A stretch of DNA of 64,000 nucleotides, taken from assembly GCF_964033635.1 (NCBI RefSeq), contig NZ_OZ035533.1, positions 4,216,001 through 4,280,000 on the forward strand, read 5' to 3'. Source of the DNA: Chitinophaga sp. MM2321 (lineage in GTDB: Bacteria > Bacteroidota > Bacteroidia > Chitinophagales > Chitinophagaceae). How positions within the stretch are numbered: position 1 is the first letter of the stretch; each line of letters begins with the position of its first letter. Made by a program: the position numbers and the translations under genes. Shown here in pieces: positions 7,594-16,321 of the stretch. Below the pieces are notes generated by a model. The model ran no database searches. It worked only from the letters and a program-made list of their open reading frames with translations, and was not told the origin of the DNA.

Positions 7594-9054
7594 TTGTCCT
7601 ATATCCGCTTTACCATGCAGTTCTTTACGTGCATGATCCCTTTTATAAAAAGTACTGCACAGAACATTGTTCCCAATCCGGGCTTTGAGGATGTGAATAT
7701 CTGTACAGAATACCATGCACCCTGTGCCCCCAGCGCCTGGGAGTCAACAGCACCGCATATCAGCAAAATAATTTATAAAGAAGACAAAGGGCAACACTAC
7801 CTCACCCTCACCACACAAAGCAGGATTAACCCGGATTTCCGGTCGTATTGCCAGACAACACTGCTATGCCCGCTGCAGCAGGGCCAAACCTATACGCTGC
7901 GCATGTACACCAGGAACAACCACGACGAGCTACCACTCACGGATATACGATTTGATACCGCTGCCGTGTTCCGCAACGCTACCAGTATGCTGAACCTGAA
8001 GCCTTCCCTGCAACTCACTTCAAAGAACATTGCCGGACAATACCATAACTGGACCATCCTGGAGAAAACATTCGTAGCAGACAAAAACGCTACACATCTT
8101 ATCATAGGCAATTTTCAAAGAAAAACGCACCCGGCGAAAGGTGAATCTTACCTCTACCTGGACAGTGTTACCATCACCCCGTTATCCGGTAAGATATGTG
8201 CCGATGCAGATTCCATCAAAGCGCAACTATATGCCTACCATAACCGGCACTCCTTTTACCTGACAAGTAGCCCCACCGAAGAAGCATATACCCGGATGCC
8301 GGCCCGCGCACCGTTACCACAGGCGGTGTTTCAGCGCAGTGGCCAATGCGATACTTTATTGCTGAAAAGTGATTTCTTCCTGCCGCATAGTAAAAACATC
8401 AACCCCTCTTATGTAGGCCAACTGGATAAAATGTTGAAAGTAGCACACAACGACGTACGTAATAAAATAGGGCTCACCGGTTATGCACACCGGTCGGCGA
8501 ATAAAAAATACAACGAGATCATTGCACAGGACCGGGCCAATGAAGTAGCCAAATACTTTGTTTATCAGCAGGGATACAGCTTCGACGATTTTACCATTGC
8601 CGGTGCAGATGGCACTGCACCCGACGGAGACACCAGCGAACTGGTCATGCTGGTCAGCTGCCAGCCTGCTCCCGAAGTAACGGTACCGGACATACGAACA
8701 GATACCCTGATTATTCCCGACCTGCTCTTTAAAGTAAACAGCAGCGAACTTAATGTCCATATGCTCCTGTCCATGGACAGCCTGATAAGCAAAATACCGG
8801 TAAATGATAGTATAGCCGTTTCCGTTACCGGCCACACCGACAATACAGGTACCGGTGAATACAACCAGGAGCTGTCTATGCGCAGAGCGGGCACTGTAGC
8901 AGATTATATCCGGAATAAAAAACCGGGGGCTGTCATCAGTGAGGTGAATGGTATGGGAGAATCTATGCCGGTGGCAGACAATAATACCGTTGAAGGGAGA
9001 AGAAAAAACCGGAGAGTAGAAATCGTGCTCTATTATCTCCCGAAAAAAAATTAA
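7594..9054 (+). CDS. Exported OmpA-domain (peptidoglycan-binding) protein
   Basis: 486 residues. Order: signal peptide; an N-terminal beta-sandwich-like region beginning IVPNPGFEDVNIC (about 25-200), a start common in Bacteroidota surface proteins; a degenerate OmpA-like segment (about 265-345, LTGYAHRSANKKYNEIIAQD); and a complete OmpA C-terminal domain (about 370-484, VTGHTDNTGTGEYNQELSM and NRRVEIVLY). The complete copy should bind peptidoglycan and anchor the protein to the cell wall. The start is uncertain: TTG at 7594 gives the longer signal peptide, while ATG at 7615 gives a short one (MQFFTCMIPFIKSTAQ). The stop overlaps the stop of the convergent esterase by a few bases. Confidence 0.85.
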   Translation: MSYIRFTMQFFTCMIPFIKSTAQNIVPNPGFEDVNICTEYHAPCAPSAWESTAPHISKIIYKEDKGQHYLTLTTQSRINPDFRSYCQTTLLCPLQQGQTYTLRMYTRNNHDELPLTDIRFDTAAVFRNATSMLNLKPSLQLTSKNIAGQYHNWTILEKTFVADKNATHLIIGNFQRKTHPAKGESYLYLDSVTITPLSGKICADADSIKAQLYAYHNRHSFYLTSSPTEEAYTRMPARAPLPQAVFQRSGQCDTLLLKSDFFLPHSKNINPSYVGQLDKMLKVAHNDVRNKIGLTGYAHRSANKKYNEIIAQDRANEVAKYFVYQQGYSFDDFTIAGADGTAPDGDTSELVMLVSCQPAPEVTVPDIRTDTLIIPDLLFKVNSSELNVHMLLSMDSLISKIPVNDSIAVSVTGHTDNTGTGEYNQELSMRRAGTVADYIRNKKPGAVISEVNGMGESMPVADNNTVEGRRKNRRVEIVLYYLPKKN

Positions 9055-9794
9055 CTAAAATAAGATAACCGCAAAAAGGTATTGAAAGCTGTTTTCCAGG
9101 TAGCAGTATCATGACGACCACCTGCTATTTCCAGGTAATGAATATCCGTATCCATGCGGTACCCTTTCTGTTGCAGCTCCTGCATCAGGTCCTGCGTATC
9201 GTCAATACTGTCGATAATGCCGTTGTTGTTGCGGTCATCCGTTTCGTCGGCGGTACCACATTGAAAAAAGAACTGCAACCCTGGATGATAATCCCCTTCG
9301 CGGATCAGGCGATGCATGATCCGGTGGTCATGATCGTTGTAATCTTCATTCAGCTCATGGCTACGCCACCACAATGCACCGGAAAGTACACCGGCCATAC
9401 TAAAAATACCGGGATGCTGCCATACAATATCAAGTGCAGACAACCCACCGAGCGAAAAGCCCGCAAAGGCACGCCGGGTAAAGGTTACATTACTGTATTC
9501 CTTTTCCAGGAAAGGCAGCAGCTCCTCCATAATAAAACGGGTGTAATCCGCAGCCCTGTTGCCCTGCCCCAGGTAATCCGCCTCCGCAGCGGTGCCATAC
9601 TCCAGACGCCGCTTGGGACCCGCGTGGATAGCCACGATAAACACAGCAGGCATCCCCTGTTCCAGCATTTCAGGCAGGTCCTGCCCGTCATTCACCAATA
9701 GCAGCGGTAACTGGCTTATTCCAGGGTGATACACGTCCATAGTCACTTCCCGCAGGATAAACCTGGAAAACAAACGTTGATGGAAGATCTTCAT
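9051..9794 (-). CDS. Alpha/beta-hydrolase, putative esterase (Esterase D / enterochelin-esterase type)
   Basis: 247 residues, no signal peptide. The nucleophile elbow is GFSLGG with Ser114; the likely catalytic His is H228 in GGRHDTATW. Between them an unusual acidic stretch, ADETDDRNNNGIIDSIDD (about 182-199), follows the FxCGxxDE element and looks like a calcium-binding DxNxxGxID loop. The family hydrolyses acyl or peptide esters; the substrate is unknown. It is transcribed away from a second hydrolase gene 57 bases off, and the amidoligase/ATP-grasp genes follow in that direction, so a shared role with that cluster is likely but inferred. Confidence 0.85.
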   Translation of the reverse strand: MKIFHQRLFSRFILREVTMDVYHPGISQLPLLLVNDGQDLPEMLEQGMPAVFIVAIHAGPKRRLEYGTAAEADYLGQGNRAADYTRFIMEELLPFLEKEYSNVTFTRRAFAGFSLGGLSALDIVWQHPGIFSMAGVLSGALWWRSHELNEDYNDHDHRIMHRLIREGDYHPGLQFFFQCGTADETDDRNNNGIIDSIDDTQDLMQELQQKGYRMDTDIHYLEIAGGRHDTATWKTAFNTFLRLSYFS

Positions 9795-9851
9795 CTCAAC
9801 AATTTACCAATAAACCAATAATCTTTTTTAAATTTAACTAAACACTTTCCC

Positions 9852-10559
9852 TTGACAGAAAACTATTACAAATGGCATTCGCCCAATCTGGGAAAGGAAT
9901 TCGAGATGCTGGTGTTCGGTGACAGCGGGTTTCCATTACTCCTCTTCCCTACCTCCATGGGTCGCTACTATGAAAGTAAAGACCGTGGCCTGATAGATGC
10001 TATCAGCTGGTTTATTGAGGAAGGCCGCGTGAAAGTATATTGCCCCGATAGTATTGATGCCAGCAGCTGGTACAACAAAAGTATTGCCCCGCAATACAGA
10101 GCGTATAACCATACCTGTTATGACAAACTCCTGCTGGAAGAAATTCTTCCCCGTATGGAAGCAGAAACCGGTATGAACCGCATCGTGGCCACCGGATGTA
10201 GTTTCGGCGGTTTCCATGCAGCCAATTTTGCTTTCCGTCATCCGGAAAAAGTATCGTACCTGTTTAGTCTCAGCGGTATTTTCGACATCAAACCACGGAT
10301 GGACGGCTATTACGACGATAACGTATATTTCAATAATCCGGCAGACTTTATGACGGATAATCAACAGGCAGACCTATGGCGGATGGGCATCGTATTAGGC
10401 GTAGCAGATACCGATGTAACCCGCCCGCAAAATGAGCAGATGTCGGGTATCCTGGCAGCAAAAAACATCACCCACTGGCTGGACGTACGTCCGCATACCC
10501 TGCACGACTGGCCCGTATGGCGCGAAATGCTGCCGCATTATCTATCACTCATCAAGTAA
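9852..10559 (+). CDS. Alpha/beta-hydrolase, esterase-like (COG4947-type)
   Basis: 235-residue cytoplasmic protein with nucleophile elbow GCSFGG (Ser117) and a C-terminal His in RPHTLHDWPVW. It begins TENYYKWHSPNLGKEFEMLV, typical of a family of small esterases that recur beside ATP-grasp and GCS2 genes. The start is a TTG at 9852; there is no ATG until residue 19, and the residues before it are family-like, so TTG is preferred. The downstream ATP-grasp gene starts 5 bases after this stop, so the two are co-transcribed and probably translationally coupled. Substrate unknown; removal of an acyl or ester group from the ligase product is one possibility. Confidence 0.85.
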   Translation: MTENYYKWHSPNLGKEFEMLVFGDSGFPLLLFPTSMGRYYESKDRGLIDAISWFIEEGRVKVYCPDSIDASSWYNKSIAPQYRAYNHTCYDKLLLEEILPRMEAETGMNRIVATGCSFGGFHAANFAFRHPEKVSYLFSLSGIFDIKPRMDGYYDDNVYFNNPADFMTDNQQADLWRMGIVLGVADTDVTRPQNEQMSGILAAKNITHWLDVRPHTLHDWPVWREMLPHYLSLIK

Positions 10560-10564
10560 GGACT

Positions 10565-11638
10565 ATGAAAAAAATAGGCATTCTTTTCGGACAGGAAGAC
10601 ACCTTCCCACAGGCATTTGTGGATCGTGTTAACCGCATCAATCCACCCGGCATTTTCGCAGAATTTGTAACCATCGATAAAGTGTTGCAGGGCGCCGATT
10701 GCGGCTACGCCGTAATCCTGGACCGTATTTCACAGGATGTACCCTTTTACCGCGCCTTCCTGAAAAATGCGGCCGCCGCCGGCACTGCAGTGATCAACAA
10801 CCCTTTCTGGTGGAGTGCTGATGATAAATTCTTTAACAATGCACTGGCACAAAAAATAGGCGTAAATGTACCCCGCACCGTACTGCTGCCTTCCAACGCA
10901 TTACCCGATAATACCACCGATAAATCTTTCCGCAACCTCGTTTACCCATTCGACTGGAACACCATTTTCGATTACATCGGGTTTCCGGCTTATATGAAGC
11001 CCTATGCAGGCGGTGGCTGGAAGCATGTTTATCAGTTAGATGACAAAGAAGACTTCTTCCGTAAACACAGCGAAACCGGGCAACTGGTGATGATGTTGCA
11101 GGAAGAAATTGATTTCAGCCAGTATTACCGCTGCTACTGCATTGGCGGAAAAGAAGTACGCATTATGCCTTACAATCCAAGGAATACCCCTAATCTCCGC
11201 TACCAGGCGGATTTTAAAGGTAGTTCGGCACTAATGGAACAGATCACCGAACAGGTGCTTACGCTGAATCAGTACCTGGGTTATGATTTCAATACGGTGG
11301 AAATAGCCGTACGCAGTGAAGTACCCTACGCTATTGACTTCTGCAATCCCGCACCCGATGCAGACCTACCGTCTGTTGGAGAAGAAAATTTTGAATGGGT
11401 GGTGGAAACCAGCGCCCATTATGCCATTGAAAGGGCCATTGCCCAAAAACCGGGGAAAGACAATCTTACCTGGGGCAAATTTGTACAACGCACACCGCCC
11501 AGAGCCAGGAAAGAAGCAGCTCCCAAACCCAAAAAGGAAACCGTGCCTAAACCAAAGAAAGCAACCAAAACAACCGCAAAGAAAGCGATCACATCTCCCA
11601 AAAAAATTACCGCTAAAAAACAGTCAAAAGAAAAATAA
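10565..11638 (+). CDS. ATP-grasp ligase (RimK/D-Ala-ligase-like) with Lys/Pro-rich tail
   Basis: 357 residues starting MKKIGILFGQEDTFP. ATP-grasp features: the nucleotide-binding lysine in FPAYMKPYAGGGWKHVY (about 142-158) and the Mg-binding Asp/Asn pair in AIDFCNPAPDADL (about 260-272). Such enzymes form an acyl-phosphate and join a carboxylate to an amine or thiol. The last 45 residues are unlike the rest: repeats of KPKKE/KPKKA and KKITAKK, resembling a histone H1 or AlgP-type tail, suggesting binding to nucleic acid or another polyanion. An upstream in-frame ATG at 10517 lies inside the previous gene; the ATG at 10565 fits the family start. Followed after 65 bases by the GCS2-type ligase. 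Confidence 0.88.
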   Translation: MKKIGILFGQEDTFPQAFVDRVNRINPPGIFAEFVTIDKVLQGADCGYAVILDRISQDVPFYRAFLKNAAAAGTAVINNPFWWSADDKFFNNALAQKIGVNVPRTVLLPSNALPDNTTDKSFRNLVYPFDWNTIFDYIGFPAYMKPYAGGGWKHVYQLDDKEDFFRKHSETGQLVMMLQEEIDFSQYYRCYCIGGKEVRIMPYNPRNTPNLRYQADFKGSSALMEQITEQVLTLNQYLGYDFNTVEIAVRSEVPYAIDFCNPAPDADLPSVGEENFEWVVETSAHYAIERAIAQKPGKDNLTWGKFVQRTPPRARKEAAPKPKKETVPKPKKATKTTAKKAITSPKKITAKKQSKEK

Positions 11639-11667
11639 ATCTTTTATCTCCGCAACTCCGTTATTCA

Positions 11668-11691
11668 TACGTAATTTTACCTTATTACGTA
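11668..11691. promoter_or_regulatory. Dyad TACGTAAT-N8-ATTACGTA upstream of the amidoligase gene
   Basis: Perfect 8-bp inverted repeat with an 8-base spacer, ending 12 bases before the GCS2-type ligase ATG. It could be an operator or a short attenuator-like hairpin for the ligase gene. No U-tract follows. Function inferred only from symmetry and position. Confidence 0.35.
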
Positions 11692-11703
11692 AAAACTATC
11701 AAT

Positions 11704-12813
11704 ATGTTCAGGGCGTTTACGCTGGGTATAGAAGAAGAATACATGGTGATGGACCCCCGCACCCGGGAGCTACGGTCACACGAACAAAAGATCGTAGAAC
11801 AGGCGCATAAAGTGATCAACGACCAGGTGAAAGCAGAATTTCATCAGGCCGTAGTGGAAGTGGGTACACAGATCTGTGCCAACATACATGAAGCCCGGAA
11901 AGATGTGGCCTTCTTACGCCGTACCATCGCACAAATAGCCGGCGATCTTGGTTTCAGCATCGGCGCATCGGGTACACACCCCTTCAGCAAGTGGGAAAAG
12001 CAACTGATCACCGATCATCCCCGCTATTTCGAAATCGTAAATGAAATGCAGGATGCCGCCCGCTCTAACCTGATTTTCGGACTGCACGTGCATGTAGGCA
12101 TGGAAAACCGGGAGATGGCACTTCATATAGCCAACTCCGTTAGATACTTCTTACCGCATATTTTTGCGCTCAGTACCAACTCCCCTTTCTGGGAAGGTCG
12201 TAACACCGGCTTCAAATCCTTCCGTACCAAGGTTTTTGACAAATTTCCCCGTACCGGCATCCCCGATTATTTTGCCAGCATTGAAGAATATGATAACTAC
12301 ATCAAGCTGCTGGTAAAAACAAATTGTATAGATAATGCCAAAAAAGTATGGTGGGATCTGCGGGTACATCCATTCTTCAACACGGTGGAATTCCGCATTT
12401 GCGATGTGCCCATGTCACTCGATGATACGATCACAATCGCGGGTCTTTTCCAGGCGGTATGTGCAAAGATTTACAAGCTGCGCATGCAGAACCTCAACTT
12501 CATCATCTACAACCGCGCGCTGGTAAACGAAAACAAATGGCGCGCATCCCGCTATGGTATTGATGGTAACCTCATAGACTTTGGTAAGGAGATGGAAGTG
12601 AACACACGGGCACTCATATACGAATTACTCGATTTCGTAGATGATGTGGTGGATGATCTGGGCAGCCGCGAAGTAATCCAGTCCACCACCAATATCCTGG
12701 AAAAAGGTACCGGGGCAGACCGGCAACTCAAAAAATTTGAGGAAACCAACGACCTCGTGGCAGTGACGGATTTTATTCAGGGGCAATTTCTAAAGGGCTG
12801 TGACCAGGATTGA
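11704..12813 (+). CDS. GCS2-family carboxylate-amine ligase (YbdK-type, glutamate-cysteine-ligase-like)
   Basis: 369 residues, the usual length of the YbdK/GCS2 family. The N-terminus FTLGIEEEYMVMDPRTREL-like stretch (residues 4-21) contains the metal-binding glutamates; FGLHVHVGMEN (about 122-132) is the second conserved block. The family uses ATP to couple a gamma- or alpha-carboxylate to an amine. The true substrate is often not glutamate plus cysteine, and no glutathione synthetase of standard type is adjacent. It sits between an ATP-grasp ligase and a glutamine amidotransferase, which points to a multi-step peptide or amide synthesis. The final codons (C-D-Q-D-stop) are made by tandem TGACCAGGATT units at the edge of a family A palindrome. 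Confidence 0.9.
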   Translation: MFRAFTLGIEEEYMVMDPRTRELRSHEQKIVEQAHKVINDQVKAEFHQAVVEVGTQICANIHEARKDVAFLRRTIAQIAGDLGFSIGASGTHPFSKWEKQLITDHPRYFEIVNEMQDAARSNLIFGLHVHVGMENREMALHIANSVRYFLPHIFALSTNSPFWEGRNTGFKSFRTKVFDKFPRTGIPDYFASIEEYDNYIKLLVKTNCIDNAKKVWWDLRVHPFFNTVEFRICDVPMSLDDTITIAGLFQAVCAKIYKLRMQNLNFIIYNRALVNENKWRASRYGIDGNLIDFGKEMEVNTRALIYELLDFVDDVVDDLGSREVIQSTTNILEKGTGADRQLKKFEETNDLVAVTDFIQGQFLKGCDQD

Positions 12814-12953
12814 CCAGGATTAAAAGGATTAAAAGATTTATAGGATGGGTGTTTTGTTGAAAGATTTTGTCGAAAGGCTTATTATATCATAAATATAAAA
12901 TCATTCAACAAAACACCCATCCTTTTAAATCCTAAAATCCTTTAATCTTGGTC
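12801..12953. repeat. Family A intergenic palindrome, copy 2
   Basis: About 153 bp inverted repeat. The left end is a tandem TGACCAGGAT TGACCAGGATT and the right end reads AATCTTGGTCA. Inside are the AGGATTAAAAG-type A+T-rich arms and the core GGATGGGTGTTTTGTTGA / TCAACAAAACACCCATCC. The loop (about 12864-12902) is longer than in the other copies. The second TGA of the left end is the stop of the GCS2-type ligase. Unlike copies 1 and 3 it lies between two genes on the same strand. Confidence 0.9.
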
Positions 12954-12973
12954 AATTGTTTTAATTTTGCACT

Positions 12974-13870
12974 ATGCATCCAATTAAAAACAACTGGAAG
13001 GTGGCAGTGCTGGATATGTATGAAGGCGTACCAAATGAAGGTATGCGTTGTATCCGGGAAATTTTGTCTCAATATGCGGACATGCATGCGCTGGACTTAC
13101 AATTTGATGAATTTGAGGTGCGGCAACATCAACAATTGCCGGATACTTCTTACGATATTTATATTTCAACGGGCGGCCCAGGCAGCCCGGTAGACAGTGA
13201 AGGCAGTGATTGGGAACGCGCTTATTTCTCCCTGGTAGAAGACCTCTTGGAATGGAACCGCACCCAGGAACAGAAAAAACCGGTGTTTTTTATCTGTCAC
13301 TCCTACCAGATCATGTGTCGCTATTACCAACTCGGCAATGTGTGCAGGCGGAAGTCACCCGCATTTGGCGTTTTCCCCGTACATAAAACAGCGGCAGGTA
13401 TGCGGGAACAGGTTTTCAGCGCCCTCCCCGATCCGTTTTATATTGTAGACAGCCGCAACTGGCAGGTGATAGAACTGAACTACGAAAACCTGCAAGCCAT
13501 GGGCGGACACGTACTGGCCCTCGAAAAAGAAAGGCCGCATGTTCCGTTGGAACGCGCTACCATGGCCATCCGGTTTAATGAACACTTCATCGGCACACAA
13601 TTTCATCCGGAAGCGGATGCCGATGGAATGCACATGTACCTCCTGCAGGACGAAAAGAAAAAACAGGTAGTGGATAACCATGGCCCTGAAAAATACCACA
13701 GCATGCTGCAACAACTGACAAGCCCCGATAAGATCATGCTCACCCACGACCGGTTTATTACGGCCTTCCTGGATTATGCTATATACGGGGCGCTGTCTGA
13801 AAGACTGGCGGCGATTAAACATTTAGTGGAAGTGCCCGTCCATAATGATGATGAAAACACGTATTTCTAA
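12974..13870 (+). CDS. Class I glutamine amidotransferase-like protein
   Basis: 298 residues. The class I GATase triad is complete: Cys108 in FFICHSYQ, His211 and Glu213 in TQFHPEAD; the oxyanion strand is ISTGGPGSPVD. Such domains release ammonia from glutamine for a partner synthase, or act as gamma-glutamyl hydrolases when alone. No synthase domain is fused, so the partner may be one of the flanking ligases. The region after the triad (about 214-298) is longer than in a bare GATase domain and is mostly helical. It follows the family A repeat and precedes the second ATP-grasp gene by 38 bases. Confidence 0.87.
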   Translation: MHPIKNNWKVAVLDMYEGVPNEGMRCIREILSQYADMHALDLQFDEFEVRQHQQLPDTSYDIYISTGGPGSPVDSEGSDWERAYFSLVEDLLEWNRTQEQKKPVFFICHSYQIMCRYYQLGNVCRRKSPAFGVFPVHKTAAGMREQVFSALPDPFYIVDSRNWQVIELNYENLQAMGGHVLALEKERPHVPLERATMAIRFNEHFIGTQFHPEADADGMHMYLLQDEKKKQVVDNHGPEKYHSMLQQLTSPDKIMLTHDRFITAFLDYAIYGALSERLAAIKHLVEVPVHNDDENTYF

Positions 13871-13908
13871 TCTTCATCTTCATGCGTCATTTGTAATTTT
13901 TCAACATT

Positions 13909-15108
13909 ATGATTCCTGCTGTCAGAACATCCTATAATCAACAGTTTACTACCGCCCAATACCAGGATTTTTTAAAGGGCATCGCACAGGATGCGGGCAT
14001 TGCGCCCTCCTTCCGTGTAGCAGAAACACCCGTGTTTGTACCCGCTGCCCTCACGGCAAAACTGGTACAGGCCTGTGAGGAAATTGTGAACGTGATCCTG
14101 CGGCCCGACTTCAAAACCATTACCAGGGAAGCCATTCCACCGGAACTGAAAGTACCGCACGAGAATGATCATCCCCACTTTATAGTGATCGACTTTGCCG
14201 TATGTGAGCAGGAAGATGGTTCACTGGGGCCCCAGCTCATAGAGCTACAGGGCTTTCCCTCCATGTATGCCTTCCAGGACGTGATGGCCCGGCAATTCAA
14301 AACACATTTCGACATTCCCGGACAACTACATAATTTCTTTAACGGACTCGATGAAACATCTTACTACCAGCTGTTGCGTAAAATGATTATCGGCGATCTT
14401 CCGCCTGAAGAAGTGGTCCTGCTGGAAGTGAAGCCAGAAGAGCAAAAGACCCGGATAGACTTTTACAGTACAGAGAAATATATCGGTATCAAAACGGTGT
14501 GTATCACCCAATTGATCCAGGAAGGAAAAAAATTGTTTTATGAACAGGATGGTATTAAAACACCCATCCAGCGCATCTATAACCGCATCATTTTCGACGA
14601 CCTGCAAAAGCAAGCCGCTTCGCTGGCGCCGCATGTAAACCTGTTCCAGGACCTGGATGTAGAATGGATTACGCACCCCAATTGGTTTTACCGCATCAGC
14701 AAATACACGCTGCCCTTTATTCACAGTGAATTTGTACCAAAGAGCTGGTTCCTGCATGAGCTGCCTGTTATTCCCGCAGACCTGGAAAATTATGTATTGA
14801 AGCCCCTCTTTTCTTTTGCCGGTAAAGGTGTGCTGATAGATGTAACACCCGAAGATATTGATCAGATCAAAGATCCCGAAAACTGGATCCTCCAGCATAA
14901 AGTGAAATATGCCCCGGCTATTCAAACTCCCACCGGCCCGGCCATCTGCGAAATCAGGATGATGTATATCTGGCCGGATGACACTGCGCGTCCTATTCTT
15001 GTACACAACCTCGCCCGCATCAGTAAAGGAAAGATGATCGGCGTAGGATTCAATGACAAAGAAACCTGGGTAGGCGGTAGCTGCTGTTTTTTTGAATCAG
15101 CAGAATAA
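13909..15108 (+). CDS. Divergent ATP-grasp-like protein (possibly circularly permuted / glutathionylspermidine-synthase-like)
   Basis: 399 residues, no signal peptide. Features compatible with ATP-grasp: a conserved acidic block LGPQLIELQGFPSMYAFQD (about 107-125), similar in style to the glutamate/asparagine metal site of glutathionylspermidine-synthase-like proteins; and a later nucleotide-binding lysine block YVLKPLFSFAGKGVLIDV (about 296-313) followed by EIRMMYIW. The order, metal-site-like block first and ATP-lysine later, would suit a circular permutation. I do not recognise a characterised orthologue. As last gene of the 9.85-15.1 kb run it is expected to form another amide or peptide bond in the same product. 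Confidence 0.75.
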   Translation: MIPAVRTSYNQQFTTAQYQDFLKGIAQDAGIAPSFRVAETPVFVPAALTAKLVQACEEIVNVILRPDFKTITREAIPPELKVPHENDHPHFIVIDFAVCEQEDGSLGPQLIELQGFPSMYAFQDVMARQFKTHFDIPGQLHNFFNGLDETSYYQLLRKMIIGDLPPEEVVLLEVKPEEQKTRIDFYSTEKYIGIKTVCITQLIQEGKKLFYEQDGIKTPIQRIYNRIIFDDLQKQAASLAPHVNLFQDLDVEWITHPNWFYRISKYTLPFIHSEFVPKSWFLHELPVIPADLENYVLKPLFSFAGKGVLIDVTPEDIDQIKDPENWILQHKVKYAPAIQTPTGPAICEIRMMYIWPDDTARPILVHNLARISKGKMIGVGFNDKETWVGGSCCFFESAE

Positions 15109-15202: not shown

Positions 15203-16321
15203 ATGTTTAGTAACCTAGCCATAGACGTAGCTTTGGGCCTTATTTTCATCTATCTGTTGTACAGCCTGCTGGCCTCCATTGTACAGGAACTGATTGCCCG
15301 GATGTTTAATTCCCGTGCGCGGATACTCACCAAAGGGTTGCGCAGAATGCTGGAAAACGCTGACCATCATACCGATCTTGGGTTTTTTGGGAGATTTACT
15401 TTTTTCAACTGGTTTTATGAATTGGGCTGGAGCGTGGTGTATTTTTTTGCACCTTTCAGAAAGAGCCCTTTTCTCCGGAAATTCTATCAGTCGCCATCTA
15501 TCCGTTGTCTGGGTGAAAACAGTGCAGCAGCAAAACCGGCATATATCAGTCCGCCTATTTTTTCACAAACCATGGTGCATCTCCTGCGGGGCAACGATCA
15601 GCAACACCATCTTACAGATGCCGCCGCCATCCGGGAATCCCTGTCAGAAAACCGCCTGCACCTGGCGCCCGATACGCTGACTCATTTACGGAACCTTTTT
15701 GAAGATGCCCGACATGATGTAACGAAGTTCCGTATTAACATGGAAGCCTGGTTCAATGAAACCATGGCCCGTGCAAGCGGCTGGTACCGCAAACAAACAC
15801 AAACCTGGCTGCTGGTCATCGGTATCGGCATTGCAGCTTTATTTAATGTGGATTCCATTGCCATCGCGCGCATCCTCATGAAAGATAAAAATGTGCGGGA
15901 GCAGATGGTGCAGCTGGCAGCCAGCCGTACGCCTGCCTTTACCGCTATAACGGATACACTTATACGAAAAAACGTACTCCACAAAGACAGCGCCTTTTTC
16001 CGGCAGGATACGTCGTTGCGTGTATTCGTAAACGATACTTCCCTGATCGGTGTATATGCCATGTTACGCGAGGATGCCGGCGACGCAAAAAATGTGCTGG
16101 GTATCAGCCGGCAGTGTGTTACAGATACAACCGGTGGAACCCGCACGATCCGCTGCGGATTTACCCATCCCTTTCAGCAAAACGGCTGGCTCATACTGGC
16201 AGGCTGGATAATGACAGCCCTGGCTATCTCCCTGGGTGCGCCTTTCTGGTTTGATCTGTTGGGAAAACTGGTAAAATTCAGGTCTGTACCCCCTACTGAT
16301 ACAACTTCAGCTACGGAATGA
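15203..16321 (+). CDS. Membrane protein of unknown function
   Basis: 372 residues with hydrophobic segments at about 6-27, 70-85, 200-216 and 335-355. Between them are soluble stretches: a basic cytoplasmic-looking part after the first helix (RMFNSRARILTKGLRRML) and a helical part with ARHDVTKFRINMEAWFNETM. A periplasmic or cytoplasmic loop after the third segment carries two cysteines. I do not recognise the family. The A+T-rich leader of about 95 bases separates it from the ATP-grasp cluster, so membership in that cluster is uncertain. RidA follows after 50 bases on the same strand. Confidence 0.7.
   Translation: MFSNLAIDVALGLIFIYLLYSLLASIVQELIARMFNSRARILTKGLRRMLENADHHTDLGFFGRFTFFNWFYELGWSVVYFFAPFRKSPFLRKFYQSPSIRCLGENSAAAKPAYISPPIFSQTMVHLLRGNDQQHHLTDAAAIRESLSENRLHLAPDTLTHLRNLFEDARHDVTKFRINMEAWFNETMARASGWYRKQTQTWLLVIGIGIAALFNVDSIAIARILMKDKNVREQMVQLAASRTPAFTAITDTLIRKNVLHKDSAFFRQDTSLRVFVNDTSLIGVYAMLREDAGDAKNVLGISRQCVTDTTGGTRTIRCGFTHPFQQNGWLILAGWIMTALAISLGAPFWFDLLGKLVKFRSVPPTDTTSATE

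What the first reader, a model, noticed from the sequence alone, without database searches (positions are those of the whole stretch)
9051..15108. Possible uncharacterised amide/peptide biosynthesis system: two hydrolases, two ATP-grasp proteins, GCS2 ligase and GATase
Six adjacent genes encode three separate ATP-dependent carboxylate-activating enzymes plus an ammonia or gamma-glutamyl handling domain and two esterases. Spacing in the forward run is short (5-65 bases apart from the family A repeat) and points to one pathway. No peptide precursor, NRPS, carrier protein or exporter is visible, so a small gamma-linked peptide, a polyamine conjugate or a protein modification are all open. From memory, comparative work on amidoligases (Iyer, Aravind and colleagues) predicted functions for similar neighbourhoods; I cannot confirm that this arrangement was included or that any product is known.
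Basis: partly seen in the sequence, partly recalled or inferred. Interest (0 to 1): 0.75.

Follow-up and report, generated by a model that had tools for sequence, protein, structure and literature searches.

The report
Unknown three-ligase amide pathway in Bacteroidota
Many bacteria of one large phylum share a set of six enzyme genes that together look able to build a small peptide-like molecule, possibly one capped with a polyamine, but I found no account of what the molecule is.

Summary
Six genes lie at 9051-15108: A (divergent esterase), B (esterase), C (RimK/LysX-like ATP-grasp), D (YbdK-type GCS2 ligase), E (class-I GATase fold), F (circularly permuted ATP-grasp). The genome is a Chitinophaga by its relatives.

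The set is a real unit. Of 94 F loci fetched from other genomes, 25 keep -A B C D E F and 58 have C near F. In 247 genomes of the phylum C, D and F occur in 87, 80 and 74; they come and go together within families (0 of 10,000 shuffles), also where they are not adjacent.

F's predicted structure matches the glutathionylspermidine-synthetase/YgiC/glutathione-synthetase fold; YgiC and YjfC are reported peptide-spermidine ligases. Candidate catalytic residues of C, D, E and F are invariant. Best reading: D makes a gamma-glutamyl-type amide, C extends it, F caps it with an amine (perhaps homospermidine), E hydrolyses a gamma-glutamyl amide, A and B turn the product over. Enzyme classes are shown; order, substrates and product are inferred.

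I found no paper on this set in capped searches; Iyer et al. 2009 was not held.

The parts
9051..9794 (-). A: alpha/beta-hydrolase (PF00756 esterase), divergently transcribed; Ser114, Asp187, His228 are invariant candidate catalytic residues
   Evidence: PF00756 79.9 bits; 27 of 27 rows keep these residues; nearest solved chains include siderophore-degrading and ferulic acid esterases
9852..10559 (+). B: second alpha/beta-hydrolase (PF00756 esterase), TTG start; candidate nucleophile Ser117, candidate acid Asp188
   Evidence: PF00756 37.3 bits; Ser117 in 46 of 50 rows, Asp188 in 50 of 50; one solved chain, a CE1 carbohydrate esterase, at E 1e-5
10565..11638 (+). C: RimK/LysX/ArgX/Ddl-like ATP-grasp ligase with a variable Lys-rich C-terminal tail
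11704..12813 (+). D: YbdK-type (GCS2) carboxylate-amine ligase
   Evidence: PF04107 200.3 bits; NF010039 536.8 bits, cut-off 371; YbdK 1r8g E 8e-50; E10-E12, E45, E52, R183, R231 in 59 of 59 rows
12974..13870 (+). E: stand-alone class-I GATase-fold enzyme with Cys108-His211-Glu213
   Evidence: PF00117 36.7 bits; C108, H211, E213 and GGPG67-70 in 53 of 53 rows
13909..15108 (+). F: circularly permuted ATP-grasp ligase of the glutathionylspermidine synthetase / YgiC / eukaryotic glutathione synthetase fold

Best explanation
A conserved Bacteroidota pathway for a small amide, built without ribosome, NRPS or carrier protein. Shown: three ligases of different kinds (D: GCS2/YbdK; C: RimK/LysX-type ATP-grasp fold; F: YgiC/GspS/glutathione-synthetase-type ATP-grasp fold), one GATase-fold enzyme (E) and two esterase-family hydrolases (A, B), of which C, D, E and F are statistically co-inherited and A and B are frequent neighbours. 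Inferred: D uses ATP to make a gamma-glutamyl or similar amide; C adds one or more amino acids; F caps a carboxylate of that peptide with an amine, most likely a polyamine such as homospermidine; E cleaves a gamma-glutamyl amide (or supplies ammonia); A and B hydrolyse esters or amides of the product for maturation, recycling or clearance. Work in the cytosol is also inferred (no signal peptide seen by eye; no tool run).
For: Order -A B C D E F in 25 of 94 fetched F loci, B C D E F in 14, C within the fetched flank of F in 58; median gaps 6-33 bases for B-C, C-D, D-E, E-F and D-F pairs. Co-occurrence in 247 genomes: C-F 71 both, 16 C only, 3 F only, 157 neither, p 5e-42; D-F 69/11/5/162, p 6e-43. 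Within-family agreement C-D 93, C-F 97, D-F 100 of 104 genomes, 0 of 10,000 shuffles as good. Candidate catalytic residues of C, D, E and F are invariant in their alignments. F's fold matches YgiC and YjfC best by VIA-align; PMC12568646 calls these peptidylpolyamine synthetases and cites a paper on their peptide-spermidine ligase activity (passages seen). 73 of 74 F genomes have a PF01916 gene (70; a family that includes the homospermidine synthase SpeY) or NspC above cut-off (3), against 132 of 173 without F, p 1e-6.
Confidence: 0.5

Rival explanations
1. The set makes a glutathione-like tripeptide or low-molecular-weight thiol: D joins Glu and Cys, C or F adds a third amino acid as glutathione synthetase does, E is a gamma-glutamyl peptidase, and A/B act like S-formylglutathione hydrolase.
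Against: A bacillithiol enzyme family (BshC) is found in 242 of 247 genomes, 237 over the cut-off, so the set does not stand in for that thiol, though a second thiol is possible. C's nearest folds are RimK, LysX, ArgX and Ddl. A scores 13.1 bits against a cut-off of 281.7 for S-formylglutathione hydrolase and B does not match it.
Confidence: 0.2
2. A protein-modification system: C adds amino acids to a target protein as RimK does to ribosomal protein S6, and F or D adds an amine or further residues; E and A/B remove the tag.
For: C's best VIA-align match is RimK, with a RimK-RpsF complex next; C bears a Lys-rich tail in some orthologs that could bind nucleic acid or an acidic partner.
Against: No small tag-like gene stands out around the loci, but only frames of about 80 aa or more were clustered; the Lys-rich tail is missing in many orthologs.
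Confidence: 0.15
3. E supplies ammonia from glutamine to D or F, so the product is a primary amide (glutathione-amide-like) rather than a polyamine conjugate.
For: E keeps Cys-His-Glu in 53 of 53 rows and often lies directly upstream of F (median gap 11 bases over 52 E-F pairs).
Against: E is missing in families f31, f38, f41, f43, f49 and f55 of the sample, which keep C, D and F, so it is not needed for F's reaction there.
Confidence: 0.15

Closest known systems
E. coli YgiC and YjfC, and glutathionylspermidine synthetase (Gss/GspS)
   Different: 10-16% identity in those rows; no amidase domain; sits with a GCS2 ligase, a second ATP-grasp, a GATase and esterases; substrate unknown.
Eukaryotic (homo)glutathione synthetases
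   Different: About 8-14% identity in the VIA-align rows seen; partner genes differ.
YbdK family carboxylate-amine ligases (GCS2, NF010039/PRK13515)
   Same: D passes the curated cut-off and keeps the Glu-rich site.
   Different: The physiological substrate of YbdK is, as far as I recall, unknown; D's acceptor is untested.
RimK / LysX / ArgX / D-Ala-D-Ala ligases
   Different: Below the RimK family cut-off (29.1 against 143.4); no partner such as LysW or RpsF was noticed nearby (not searched for by model).
E-64 pathway (ATP-grasp Cp1B with other amide-forming enzymes)
   Different: Fungal, different partner enzymes and substrates.
gss-hss clusters of beta-proteobacteria and a phage
   Same: Suggested route to glutathionylhomospermidine (PMC9992855 passages).
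   Different: The passages seen mention no GCS2 ligase, second ATP-grasp, GATase or esterase; here no homospermidine synthase is in the cluster.
Iyer et al. 2009 amidoligase neighbourhoods
   Same: Recalled as predicting many such pathways.
   Different: Text not held, so whether this arrangement is in it is unknown.

Membership tests
GspS/YgiC/YjfC-type peptide-amine ligases (F) | circularly permuted ATP-grasp fold of the GspS synthetase domain | tested here: met
GspS/YgiC/YjfC-type peptide-amine ligases (F) | curated family model match (Pfam or NCBIfam) | tested here: not met
   no family at E up to 1; PDB profile hit to YgiC only at E 0.01
GspS/YgiC/YjfC-type peptide-amine ligases (F) | ATP- and metal-binding residues | tested here: inconclusive
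   D95, E112, Q114, K298, E348, R350 invariant in 95 rows; K298 lies in a KP segment aligned with YgiC; other residues not mapped on a solved structure
GspS/YgiC/YjfC-type peptide-amine ligases (F) | ligation of spermidine or another polyamine to a peptide | not testable with these tools
   needs assay
YbdK / GCS2 carboxylate-amine ligases (D) | curated family score and conserved Glu residues | tested here: met
   NF010039 536.8 bits against 371; E10-12, E45, E52 in 59 of 59
RimK family (C) | curated family score TIGR00768 | tested here: not met
   29.1 bits against 143.4
ATP-grasp superfamily, RimK/LysX-like fold (C) | fold and conserved ATP-grasp residues | tested here: met
class-I GATase fold (E) | Pfam match and Cys-His-Glu | tested here: met
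   36.7 bits against 22.8; 53 of 53 rows
gamma-glutamyl peptidase (E) | hydrolysis of gamma-glutamyl amides | not testable with these tools
   analogy with plant GGP1 is recalled
PF00756 esterases (A, B) | Pfam match and GxSxG nucleophile | tested here: met
   79.9 and 37.3 bits against 22; Ser in 27 of 27 (A), 46 of 50 (B)
graspetide (RiPP) clusters | short precursor gene by the ATP-grasp gene | tested here: inconclusive
   no recurrent small gene among frames of about 80 aa or more; shorter frames were not surveyed; C's Foldseek list includes MdnC and PsnB

The most novel reading that the evidence does not exclude
Much of the Bacteroidota phylum makes an undescribed gamma-glutamyl peptide-homospermidine conjugate (an analogue of glutathionylspermidine or trypanothione, but built by a YbdK-type ligase, a RimK-like ligase and a YgiC-like ligase), with its own gamma-glutamyl hydrolase and esterases to regulate free polyamine.
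Probability: 0.27. Interest if true: 0.8.

Novelty: new variant of a known kind. Interest (0 to 1): 0.6.

Why it matters
The three ligases resemble families whose physiological substrates are, as far as I recall, poorly known (YbdK, YgiC/YjfC). Here they are tied together, with high conservation and concerted gain and loss, in about a third of the 247 sampled Bacteroidota genomes (74-87 of 247 by gene). That gives a defined gene set in culturable strains (Chitinophaga, Niastella, Pedobacter, Mucilaginibacter and others named) in which one set of knockouts and one metabolomics run could reveal a widespread metabolite and assign functions to several orphan enzyme families at once.

Tried and rejected
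Replacement of bacillithiol: rejected, BshC is in 242 of 247 genomes. Graspetide or RiPP cluster: not favoured; no recurrent small gene among frames of about 80 aa or more, shorter ones not surveyed. Gene F as part of one fixed operon everywhere: rejected, 29 of 94 loci hold none of the other five in the flank. Neighbours of F in the 36 loci without C were looked at: ferredoxin plus amidohydrolase in one family, a sodium/solute symporter in two loci, otherwise mixed; no common theme. NspC as the polyamine source: above cut-off in only 10 of 247 genomes; SpeE gave no hit in the own genome; SpeA only below cut-off; a PF01916 gene is present there at 1.7e-42. The replacement protein X compared with F by profile gave only weak similarity (probability 21.6, E 0.001; X profile of 4 rows), so I call them only similar in type. 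The D-E inverted repeat was considered as a regulator and set aside as a dispersed element (105 matching pieces). No match to C on plasmids. Literature searches without a match to this gene set: (8, 30 and 89 showed 20 of 38, 124 and 1,171 papers); some searches were on single topics (gamma-glutamyl peptidase, homospermidine).
Full report
THE GENES. Six frames were checked in the window: A 9051-9794 (-), B 9852-10559, C 10565-11638, D 11704-12813, E 12974-13870, F 13909-15108 (all +). Pfam and NCBIfam place A and B in PF00756 (esterase), D in GCS2 with a strong match to the YbdK-type carboxylate-amine ligase model NF010039, and E in class-I GATase. C has only sub-threshold hits to R2K and RimK models, and F has none. 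Gaps are B-C 5, C-D 65, D-E 160, E-F 38 bases; A is divergent, 57 bases from B.

CONSERVED RESIDUES. In the family alignments made from the fetched loci plus the window protein: C K145, GGG149-151, E246, D258, N261 in 59 of 59; D E10-E12, E45, E52, R183, R231 in 59 of 59; E C108, H211, E213 and GGPG67-70 in 53 of 53; F D95, E112, Q114, K298, G305, G307, E348, R350 in 95 of 95; A S114, D187, H228 in 27 of 27; B S117 in 46 of 50. Matches scoring 150 bits or less were left out of these alignments, so the counts lean to clear orthologs. In the wider C alignment two distant members (L161, 35%; L163, 42% identity) have lost several of these residues. That the residues are catalytic is inferred from the families; the D187/H228 assignment in A is a guess from conservation.

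CONSERVED NEIGHBOURHOOD. F occurs in 41 of 59 genomes of the relatives search, own genome and all 35 other same-genus genomes included, and in 74 of 247 phylum genomes. The genus is Chitinophaga, inferred from named close homologs and from a contig of G027 with the same length as a C. niastensis contig. I fetched wide flanks for 94 F loci, one per genome: all 73 non-own F genomes of the phylum sample, 17 of 35 same-genus genomes and 4 further order members. Arrangements with matches of 80 bits or more: -A B C D E F 25; B C D E F 14; B C D F 8; C D F 5; E F 4; D E F 3; B C E F 2; C D E F 2; -A C D E F 1; C E F 1; F alone 29. Some flanks end at contig ends, so the fuller arrangements are lower bounds. 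Besides the core families, the next most frequent gene family (frames of about 80 aa or more) is in 19 of 94 loci. Named strains or species among them are of Chitinophaga, Sediminibacterium, Hydrotalea, Niastella, Niabella, Flavihumibacter, Pedobacter, Mucilaginibacter and Cryomorpha.

CO-OCCURRENCE. In the same 247 genomes C is in 87, D in 80, E in 63 (59 after I dropped four hits with E above 1e-6) and F in 74. Pair tables (both / first only / second only / neither): C-F 71/16/3/157, D-F 69/11/5/162, C-D 71/16/9/151, E-F 46/13/28/160; one-sided Fisher p 5e-42, 6e-43, 9e-36, 5e-19. Six D hits (G062, G223, G263, G271, G287, G302) at 32-39% identity come without C or F and may be other YbdK-type proteins; three C hits (G065, G143, G216) at 35-42% come without F. 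To remove family effects I shuffled labels within 15 families (104 genomes; families that I judged mixed or informative, the rest left out): agreement C-D 93, C-F 97, D-F 100, E-F 83, C-E 84, D-E 79, none reached in 10,000 shuffles. Linkage alone is not the cause: in the one-contig genome G099 C, D and F lie more than 250 kb from each other, and in G115 F lies about 1.7 Mb from C and D; of the 28 F-alone genomes also searched for C and D, 24 hold both.

A VARIANT. In 13 genomes of families f37, f40, f44, f48, f50, f60 and f61, C and E are present without F. Seven of these loci were fetched. In four the gene between C and E could be read: 452-474 aa, CP_ATPgrasp_2 (PF14403) above the cut-off in two, just below in one and clearly below in one. 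An A-like esterase lies next to E in three of the seven and B next to C in three. So another circularly permuted ATP-grasp stands in F's place; its similarity to F is weak.

THE POLYAMINE QUESTION. NspC above cut-off is in 10 of 247 genomes; the own genome has no SpeE hit, only sub-threshold SpeA, but one PF01916 deoxyhypusine-synthase-like gene, a family that includes the homospermidine synthase SpeY (PMC9992855 passages). PF01916 is in 196 of 247. By my hand tally of that listing 70 of 74 F genomes have it; three more (G052, G234, G246) have NspC above cut-off; one (G122) has neither. For genomes without F the count is 132 of 173; p 1e-6. This is family-confounded and weak support. Of the 13 C+E genomes without F, 7 have either gene.

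HOW IT MOST LIKELY WORKS. Shown: three distinct ligase types, a GATase fold and two hydrolases; C, D, E and F co-inherited. Inferred: D forms a gamma-glutamyl-type amide; C adds an amino acid; F caps with an amine; E removes gamma-glutamyl or gives ammonia; A and B turn over product. D's absence in f18 and E's absence in several families mean neither is strictly required. I give 0.5 to the general scheme and about 0.27 to a peptide-homospermidine product.

WHAT IS KNOWN. The listings I saw show no paper on the set (three of them capped). PMC2588565 (passages) mentions another GCS2-sized ligase family near a GATase-like thiol peptidase and predicts peptide formation; PMC4431377 and PMC8939145 (passages) do not mention this arrangement in the passages seen. 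Iyer et al. 2009 is not held. Hence 'new variant of a known kind', interest 0.6.

Noticed in passing
12809-12956: A 148-base palindromic element (two 60-nt arms, 80% complementary; RNA fold of the gap z -11.5) fills the D-E gap; 105 matching pieces, both strands counted, occur in the genome, so it is a dispersed repeat family.
   Followed up: partly
L128:7573-10173: F is fused in frame to a sodium/solute symporter (867-aa open frame, 160.1 bits to TIGR00813, cut-off 184); in L133 a symporter gene is directly upstream of F.
   Followed up: partly
L084, L085, L095 and others (mostly family f43): F genes without C nearby follow an amidohydrolase and often a small gene in a fixed order; in L095 these are PF07969 and a 4Fe-4S ferredoxin.
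   Followed up: partly
11501-11638: C ends in a Lys/Pro/Ala-rich low-confidence tail, present in some orthologs and absent in others.
   Followed up: no
15203-16321: The next gene downstream encodes a 372-aa protein with no family match above cut-off; by eye it has membrane segments.
   Followed up: no
L254 (own genome, C1:6391306-6392220): Deoxyhypusine-synthase-like gene (PF01916), a homospermidine-synthase candidate.
   Followed up: partly
L155, L156: C-E loci in which my ORF filter hid C (and E in L155), probably behind longer overlapping frames; their positions come.
   Followed up: no
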